This document shows, piece after piece, positions 58,415 through 58,673 of a stretch of DNA of 64,000 bases; position 1 is the first letter of the stretch; every line of letters starts with the position of its first letter. Made by a program: the position numbers and the translations under genes. Below the pieces are notes generated by a model that was not told the origin of the DNA, ran no database searches, and saw nothing but the letters and a program-made list of their open reading frames with translations. Source of the DNA: Halodesulfurarchaeum sp. HSR-GB (lineage in GTDB: Archaea; Halobacteriota; Halobacteria; Halobacteriales; Halobacteriaceae); NCBI RefSeq assembly GCF_031432215.1, contig NZ_JAVKGN010000001.1:496001-560000 (forward strand), in the 5' to 3' direction.

Positions 58415-58440
58415 TCGAGGCGGCCACTGGAAAAGGGTGA

Positions 58441-58513
58441 TAGTCCCACCAGGATTCGAACCTGGGTCGTTGCCCCCAGAAGGCAACAGGATTGGCCACT
58501 ACCCCATGGGACT
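58441..58513 (-). tRNA. tRNA-Gln (anticodon CTG)
   Basis: On the minus strand AGTCCCA pairs with TGGGACT as the acceptor stem. The anticodon stem TTGCC/GGCAA holds the loop TTCTGGG with CTG at positions 34-36. The T arm is CCAGG-TTCGAAT-CCTGG. The discriminator is A and CCA is not encoded. The first 13 bases are also found at 58560-58574, upstream in the transcript. Confidence 0.95.
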
Positions 58514-58574
58514 TCGTTTCACTCGCCCCATGTGCATCGCAAACCTGGCGGTTTGCGCAACCCCATGGGACTTC
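58501..58574. repeat. Duplicated 5' tRNA-Gln piece with hairpin between
   Basis: ACCCCATGGGACTTC occurs at 58501-58515 (overlapping the tRNA 5' end) and at 58560-58574. Between them, CGCAAACC-TGGC-GGTTTGCG forms a perfect 8-bp hairpin at 58538-58557. The spacing is 59 bases. It looks like a tandem duplication or the scar of an element inserted at the tRNA 5' end. Confidence 0.75.
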
Positions 58575-58597
58575 ACCCGACCCTATTCGACGGTCGC

Positions 58598-58605
58598 CCT
58601 TAACC
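58598..58605 (-). promoter_or_regulatory. TATA element of tRNA-Gln
   Basis: Minus-strand GGTTAAGG is about 25-30 bases before position 58574, where the partial tRNA copy begins. Transcription would therefore start at the partial copy, about 60 bases before the intact tRNA. Confidence 0.4.
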
Positions 58606-58673
58606 GTTCCGCGTTCGACTCACGAACCGCCGTTCCGCTACACTTTTGGGACTCATCACAGACTCTCGGGACG

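What the first reader, a model, noticed from the sequence alone, without database searches (positions are those of the whole stretch)
58438..58606. tRNA-Gln(CTG) with its 5' end duplicated upstream around a hairpin
The first 13 bases of the tRNA plus flank recur 59 bases upstream (58560-58574), with a perfect 8-bp hairpin between. The only TATA-like box (58598-58605) is spaced for transcription to begin at the distal partial copy. The precursor would thus carry a false 5' acceptor strand that could pair with the 3' acceptor strand and compete with correct folding or RNase P cleavage. It may be the scar of an element that used the tRNA 5' end, or a leader-based control.
Basis: partly seen in the sequence, partly recalled or inferred. 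Interest (0 to 1): 0.52.

Follow-up and report, generated by a model that had tools for sequence, protein, structure and literature searches.

The report
Hairpin cassettes stacked on tRNA ends
The odd duplicated start of this tRNA gene is one case of a widespread set of short hairpin-forming DNA units that pile up against the ends of tRNA genes in salt-loving archaea, each carrying a copy of its tRNA's end plus a matching complement, which looks like a tiny kind of mobile element not obviously described before.

Summary
The duplication is real. The 59-bp unit lies between the ancestral promoter and tRNA-Gln; a congeneric genome has an empty site. Units of this build precede tRNA-Gln in 55 of 292 sampled class genomes, and tRNA-Glu or tRNA-Gly in a few, with arms re-matched to each acceptor stem.

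Mirror-image units follow tRNA genes: 18 of 45 tRNAs here carry a >=20/22 copy of their own 3' end within 900 bp downstream (other-isotype flanks 3 of 1882). The hairpin pattern occurs in 275 of 292 class genomes and 2 of 203 genomes of the phylum outside the order. Near-identical unit bodies sit behind tRNAs of different isotypes, with arms and copies fitted to the host tRNA. Two congeneric genomes differ by clean unit gain or loss.

Best reading: non-coding, site-specific mobile cassettes that dock at tRNA ends and work like integron attC cassettes, moved in trans by an unidentified recombinase. No enzyme or movement was shown. A role in the pre-tRNA remains the main rival.

The parts
58441..58513 (-). 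tRNA-Gln(CTG), host gene of the unit
   Evidence: ARAGORN; Rfam tRNA 53.5 bits
58514..58572 (-). 59-bp 5' unit (copy - hairpin - complement arm - tail)
   Evidence: sequence; same build in 55 of 292 class genomes; absent from the aligned site of congeneric G002
58560..58572 (-). distal copy of tRNA positions 1-13; occupies about the ancestral place of the tRNA start relative to the promoter
   Evidence: exact match; empty-site alignment
58564..58571 (-). outer stem, 5' strand (GTCCCATG, part of the copy)
   Evidence: fold; covariation in 30 units
58525..58532 (-). outer stem, 3' strand (CATGGGGC): complement arm matched to the acceptor strand
   Evidence: fold; covariation
58550..58557 (-). 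inner stem, 5' strand
   Evidence: fold; 6 of 8 inner pairs have two-sided changes
58538..58545 (-). inner stem, 3' strand
   Evidence: fold
58514..58524 (-). tail between complement arm and tRNA; in relatives often GAGCGAACGAAGTGAGCG-like
   Evidence: comparison of units
58598..58605 (-). TATA-like GGTTAAGG, ancestral tRNA promoter (inferred from position and conservation)
   Evidence: conserved in G001 and in the empty site of G002

Best explanation
The feature is one unit of a class-wide family of tiny non-coding mobile cassettes that dock at tRNA gene ends. A 5' unit reads: copy of the 5' acceptor strand, inner hairpin, complement of that strand, tail, tRNA. A 3' unit is the mirror image: tRNA, spacer, complement of the 3' acceptor/T-arm, inner hairpin, copy of the last 22-25 nt. 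SHOWN: the anatomy, fit of arms to each host tRNA, the same unit body behind different tRNAs, clean presence/absence between congeners, decay of copies away from the tRNA. INFERRED: insertion is by site-specific recombination at the tRNA (at the T-arm for 3' units, at the start of the D-arm for 5' units), which keeps the tRNA whole and pushes the old end outward; the complement arm exists because the recombination site is a folded single strand whose stem rebuilds the target sequence, as in integron attC sites; the enzyme acts in trans and is unknown. In this window the unit ends up inside the (inferred) transcribed leader and is tolerated because its copy is sequestered.
For: Empty site with the same promoter in G002. 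5' unit in 55 of 292 class genomes, 24 of 77 genera, control 0; all 15 haloarchaeal hits of a second pattern lie upstream of tRNA-Gln, the 12 bacterial hits do not. 3' hairpin pattern in 275 of 292 class genomes, control 0; 40 of 43 genomes inside the order and 2 of 203 outside in the phylum sample. Own 3'-end copies >=20/22 in 18 of 45 (G000) and 20 of 42 tRNAs (G001) against 3 of 1882 and 2 of 1636 other-isotype flanks; upstream 1 of 45 and 0 of 42. 44 of 48 fetched loci with a hit have a same-strand tRNA less than 1 kb upstream. Unit gain/loss between G000 and G001, e.g. Glu(ctc) and Gly(tcc); extra proximal units at Glu(ttc), Val(gac). BLAST links between unit bodies at different isotypes: 84 pairs within one genome, 74 between the two, best 92.6% over 122 of 123 nt; spacer and core stay, arm and copy change to fit the tRNA. 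Mean copy identity falls with rank: 20.9, 20.6, 19.3 and 20.3, 19.9, 19.1 of 22. Structure covaries: 96.8% of cells paired, 51 two-sided changes against 11.9 shuffled.
Against: No recombinase identified: G000 has 4 Pfam tyrosine recombinases, and 16 genomes without a pattern hit have them too. No circular form, no excision, no transfer seen. The test whether the complement arm fits the upstream end (integration) or its own copy gave 20:4 (2 neither) at T-arm sites but only 33:16 with 29 ties over whole ends, and simple decay of distal copies gives the same bias in many cases. The focal unit is shared by two genera at apparently the same place, so it may be old and kept. 5' inner stems favour sense-strand G.T over A.C (10:1), which points to RNA; 3' inner stems do not (10:14). 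No match in plasmid or phage collections.
Confidence: 0.55

Rival explanations
1. The units are RNA elements: hairpins in the 5' leader or 3' trailer of the pre-tRNA that guide or delay RNase P / tRNase Z, possibly by binding L7Ae at a tandem G.A internal loop (motif recalled, not tested). Selection keeps the complement arm so that the copied tRNA end cannot disturb the tRNA fold.
For: The 5' unit lies downstream of the tRNA promoter. 5' stems show sense-strand wobbles, inner 10:1 and outer 9:3. Strong covariation. The complement arm protects the predicted tRNA fold. In Haloferax volcanii TSSs near the mature 5' end were found for 39 of 52 tRNA genes (PMC4983044, passage seen), so a 60-nt structured leader would be unusual.
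Against: Patchy presence: 55 of 292 for the 5' Gln unit; differing numbers of units between congeners; no sense-strand bias in 3' inner stems; the same body behind many isotypes. No RNA data here.
Confidence: 0.22
2. No dedicated mobility: arrays grow and shrink by slippage or homologous recombination between the direct repeats, and arms follow the tRNA by gene conversion in cruciforms.
For: Some neighbouring units are near-duplicates, e.g. Met units 1 and 2. Direct repeats of 22-25 nt are short but present.
Against: Does not explain first insertion into an empty site, different cores in one tandem array (L273; L068), or one body behind different isotypes.
Confidence: 0.13
3. Each unit is an independent scar of an ordinary integrated virus or plasmid that used the tRNA as attachment site and was later deleted down to its attachment sites.
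For: Partial tRNA copies at integrated elements are known in haloarchaea, e.g. 22 and 43 nt copies in Haloquadratum (PMC3119063, passages seen).
Against: Uniform small size, conserved inner hairpin classes and host-matched complement arms in many units are not expected from random deletion; no phage or plasmid match to the focal unit.
Confidence: 0.08

Closest known systems
Integron cassette arrays with attC sites (archaeal integrons: PMC9668308, passages seen)
   Same: arrays anchored at one fixed site; extra units found next to the anchor in two loci; site is an imperfect palindrome with paired boxes separated by unpaired bases; units away from any known integrase
   Different: anchor is a tRNA gene, not attI; outer boxes match the host tRNA; units are about 60-170 nt with no evident coding room; no integron integrase shown; the paper's main text has no occurrence of Halobact-, haloarchae- or tRNA
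tRNA-targeted integrative elements with tyrosine recombinases
   Same: copy of the tRNA end marks the distal border, tRNA stays whole, T-arm junction
   Different: no genes, tandem stacks, an inverted complement of the tRNA end inside each unit, also at 5' ends
PATEs and small mobile repeats of Haloquadratum walsbyi (PMC3119063, passages seen)
   Same: short non-coding mobile repeats with palindromes in a haloarchaeon
   Different: described there as causing no target duplications; no tRNA-matched arms mentioned in the passages read
E. coli tyrT repeat (rtT) (recalled; no paper found)
   Same: tandem repeats downstream of a tRNA, each with a copy of the tRNA 3' end
   Different: one locus, about 178-bp repeats, no tRNA-matched inverted arm that I recall

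Membership tests
Integron cassette array | integron integrase gene next to the array | not tested
   No integron-integrase model was searched; general tyrosine recombinases exist (4 in G000) but were not typed or placed relative to arrays
Integron cassette array | folded palindromic site with paired boxes and unpaired bases | tested here: met
   folds and covariation; arm = outer box, unmatched gap, T-arm box
Integron cassette array | attC consensus boxes shared across cassettes | tested here: not met
   outer arms follow the host tRNA instead
Integron cassette array | recombination of the folded strand by a recombinase | not testable with these tools
   needs an assay
tRNA-integrated mobile element | direct repeat of the tRNA end at both borders and an empty site in relatives | tested here: met
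tRNA-integrated mobile element | element encodes an integrase | tested here: not met
   most units in the two genomes examined are about 60-170 nt; an enzyme acting in trans is not excluded
Known RNA family (Rfam 15) | match at gathering score over the unit | tested here: not met
   in 10 loci only tRNA and one L4 leader family matched, none over a unit; on the focal region only weak matches besides tRNA
PATE / IS605-type element | no target duplication | tested here: not met
   units carry 13-25 nt copies of the target

The most novel reading that the evidence does not exclude
Haloarchaea carry a mobile cassette system anchored on tRNA genes: gene-less cassettes whose folded recombination site rebuilds the sequence of the particular tRNA end they attack, at both 5' and 3' ends, so that each tRNA gene acts as its own attI-like platform.
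Probability: 0.45. Interest if true: 0.9.

Novelty: categorically new. Interest (0 to 1): 0.8.

Why it matters
If right, nearly every haloarchaeal genome sampled holds arrays of the smallest site-specific mobile units known to me, with target choice written into a hairpin that mirrors the tRNA. That would give a new model for how folded DNA directs integration, explain a share of haloarchaeal intergenic repeats, and warn that tRNA predictors and leader/trailer annotation can be misled by tRNA-end copies. If the RNA rival is right, it would reveal structured pre-tRNA leaders and trailers in archaea.

Tried and rejected
Sigma-70 promoter and terminator scans found nothing (not suited to archaea). 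A short pattern scan of the window was uninformative. A sense/antisense whole-fold count of G.U pairs (5' units 70 against 1; 3' units 138 against 182) was replaced by stem-only counts because loop pairs confuse it. In one search the 3' outer-arm bias (67:7 at positions 0-9) was rejected as evidence, since 4 of those positions can only give G.T by transition. In one search the four 'own' votes come from one misread locus type (Arg(cct), false end copies); I still report them. In one search, nine of 166 tRNAs had upstream 5' copies, but two are a real neighbouring tRNA-Asp and two others (L110, L250 Gln) are not units. The ARAGORN set of 45 in G000 includes one doubtful Ser(cga) call in L062 that shares DNA with the Ala(ggc) array; one pair (100% over 62 nt) is that same DNA counted twice. 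Five units were left out of the covariation alignment (L144, L152, L042, L100, L250 of the 35 rows of A2), and a near-duplicate (L141 of the 36 references) was never entered, so A3 has 30 rows. Literature: ten searches (one search failed on syntax) found no description of these units; only open-licence PMC text was searchable.

Full report
OBSERVATION. The window holds one tRNA, Gln(CTG), at 58441-58513 minus. AGTCCCATGGGGT recurs exactly at 58560-58572. Between them lies the noted 8-bp hairpin, but also CATGGGGC (58525-58532), which pairs with GTCCCATG of the copy (58564-58571). The whole is one hairpin: outer stem, internal loop, inner stem, tail. In the 137-nt precursor the hairpin and the tRNA acceptor stem form side by side. 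Predicted pairing of the true acceptor is 0.873 and of the decoy 0.114; with the complement arm shuffled the means are 0.469 and 0.314. So the copy is mostly neutralised by its complement.

LOCUS HISTORY. G001 (same genus) has the unit with few changes; G012 and G006 (another genus of the family) have it before the same tRNA. G002 (same genus, incomplete genome) shares the upstream gene and the promoter-like GGAACGGTTAAGGGCG but has no unit. Counted off that alignment, TTAA is 31 nt before the tRNA in G002; here it is 27 nt before the distal copy and 86 nt before the tRNA. The unit therefore sits between the ancestral promoter and the tRNA. Whether G002 lost it or the others gained it is open.

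5' UNITS ELSEWHERE. A pattern of a repeated Gln 5' end 38-66 nt apart matches 55 of 292 class genomes, 24 of 77 genera, with no hit of the reversed control. A second pattern in named genomes gave 27 hits: 15 in haloarchaea (Haloferax, Haloarcula, Halogeometricum, Haladaptatus, Natrialba, Halopiger, Halomarina), all directly upstream of tRNA-Gln, and 12 in bacteria with no tRNA-Gln at the site. Some loci have two units in tandem, with different cores (L273, L275, L277, L257). Units of the same build stand before tRNA-Glu (L042) and tRNA-Gly(tcc) (L100, L250), with both arms matched to those acceptor stems. On 30 aligned units the proposed stems are 96.8% paired; cells with two-sided change number 51 against 11.9 in shuffles; sliding the partner drops pairing to 25-50%. 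Five of the 35 units first aligned were left out of this count because they aligned badly or differ in length.

3' UNITS. A search for the tail motif in the own genome led to tRNA genes in all eight loci fetched. All own tRNAs were then examined. Downstream stand units of this build: spacer; complement of acceptor end and T-arm; inner hairpin; copy of the last 22-25 nt starting at GGTTC. Copies of at least 20/22 lie behind 18 of 45 tRNAs in G000 and 20 of 42 in G001; other-isotype flanks give 3 of 1882 and 2 of 1636, and own upstream flanks 1 of 45 and 0 of 42. At a looser 18/22 the counts are 19 of 45 (27 copies) and 22 of 42 (40 copies). The pattern GGATTYGA-N25-55-GGTTCRAATCC occurs in 275 of 292 class genomes with no control hit. 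In a phylum sample 42 of 246 genomes match: 40 of 43 inside the order, 2 of 203 outside. Palindromic hits are counted on both strands there. Of 48 fetched loci, 44 have a tRNA on the same strand less than 1 kb upstream of a hit.

MOVEMENT. Congeners G000 and G001 differ in many arrays. At Glu(ctc), G000 has one 102-nt unit and G001 none, with 93% identical flanks beginning at the tRNA end; Gly(tcc) is similar; Glu(ttc) and Val(gac) have an extra unit next to the tRNA in G001. Among 76 unit bodies of both genomes, 84 within-genome and 74 between-genome BLAST pairs (E up to 1e-6) link different isotypes; at least one is the same DNA seen twice. Alignments of such pairs, e.g. Arg(ccg) with Lys(ttt) and Val(cac) with Leu(tag), show constant spacer and core, while complement arm and copy fit the host tRNA. 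Copies decay outward: mean identity 20.86, 20.56, 19.25 of 22 by rank in G000 and 20.25, 19.85, 19.08 in G001.

DOES THE ARM BELONG TO THE UPSTREAM END? If units arrive by recombination at the T-arm, each complement arm should fit the end just upstream, which came with it. At T-arm sites where ends differ, 20 arm bases fit the upstream end, 4 their own copy, 2 neither, in 135 units. Over whole ends the tally was 33 upstream, 16 own, 29 ties, 76 identical ends, of 154 units. Many upstream votes could reflect mere decay of outer copies. Two cases speak more directly: at Arg(tct) of G001 the tRNA's T-arm differs from G000 while all three downstream copies keep the G000-like acceptor form, and the first complement arm fits the new end; at Met of G001 the second arm fits the deviant first copy, not the second. 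Suggestive, not proof.

RNA OR DNA? 5' inner stems have 10 sense-strand G.T against 1 A.C in 25 distinct stems, outer stems 9 against 3, favouring folding of the sense strand. 3' inner stems show 10 against 14 in 57 distinct stems, no bias.

ENZYME. Tyrosine recombinases (PF00589) occur in all 18 genomes tested, 16 of them chosen because they had no pattern hit, so presence alone does not discriminate. No phage or plasmid record matches the focal unit. No Rfam family covers a unit.

VERDICT. The first finding is correct as seen but is a small corner of a larger pattern. I judge site-specific mobile cassettes with a folded, tRNA-mimicking site most likely (0.55), pre-tRNA hairpins with a processing role next (0.22). 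It resembles integron cassettes in mode but is not filed as an integron: the shared attC boxes are absent, the anchor is a tRNA and no integron integrase was looked for or shown.

Noticed in passing
L200 (G001), tRNA-Arg(tct): The T-arm of this tRNA differs from that of congeneric G000 while downstream copies keep the G000-like form, as if the gene's 3' end had been replaced.
   Followed up: partly
L062 (G000), near tRNA-Ala(ggc): ARAGORN reports a tRNA-Ser(cga) with an intron that overlaps the Ala array; probably a false call caused by tRNA-end copies.
   Followed up: no
G000:C2:41897-42056: A second replicon of 170 kb carries tRNA-Gln(ttg) and tRNA-Thr(tgt) genes in addition to chromosomal ones.
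   Followed up: no
L068 569-668 minus and L189 2403-2502 plus: Rfam's L4-Archaeoglobi ribosomal leader matches at 75 bits in these haloarchaea, near tRNA-Gly(gcc).
   Followed up: no
G455 and G380 (outside the order): The only two genomes of 203 outside the order with a 3' unit pattern hit (2 and 1 hits); in the fetched locus of G380 (L157) no same-strand tRNA lies just upstream of a hit by the test.
   Followed up: partly
L033, L034, L040, L257, L258 and others: tRNA-Gln genes of several haloarchaea are read by ARAGORN as carrying an intron; L033, L034, L257 and L258 also have the 5' unit.
   Followed up: no
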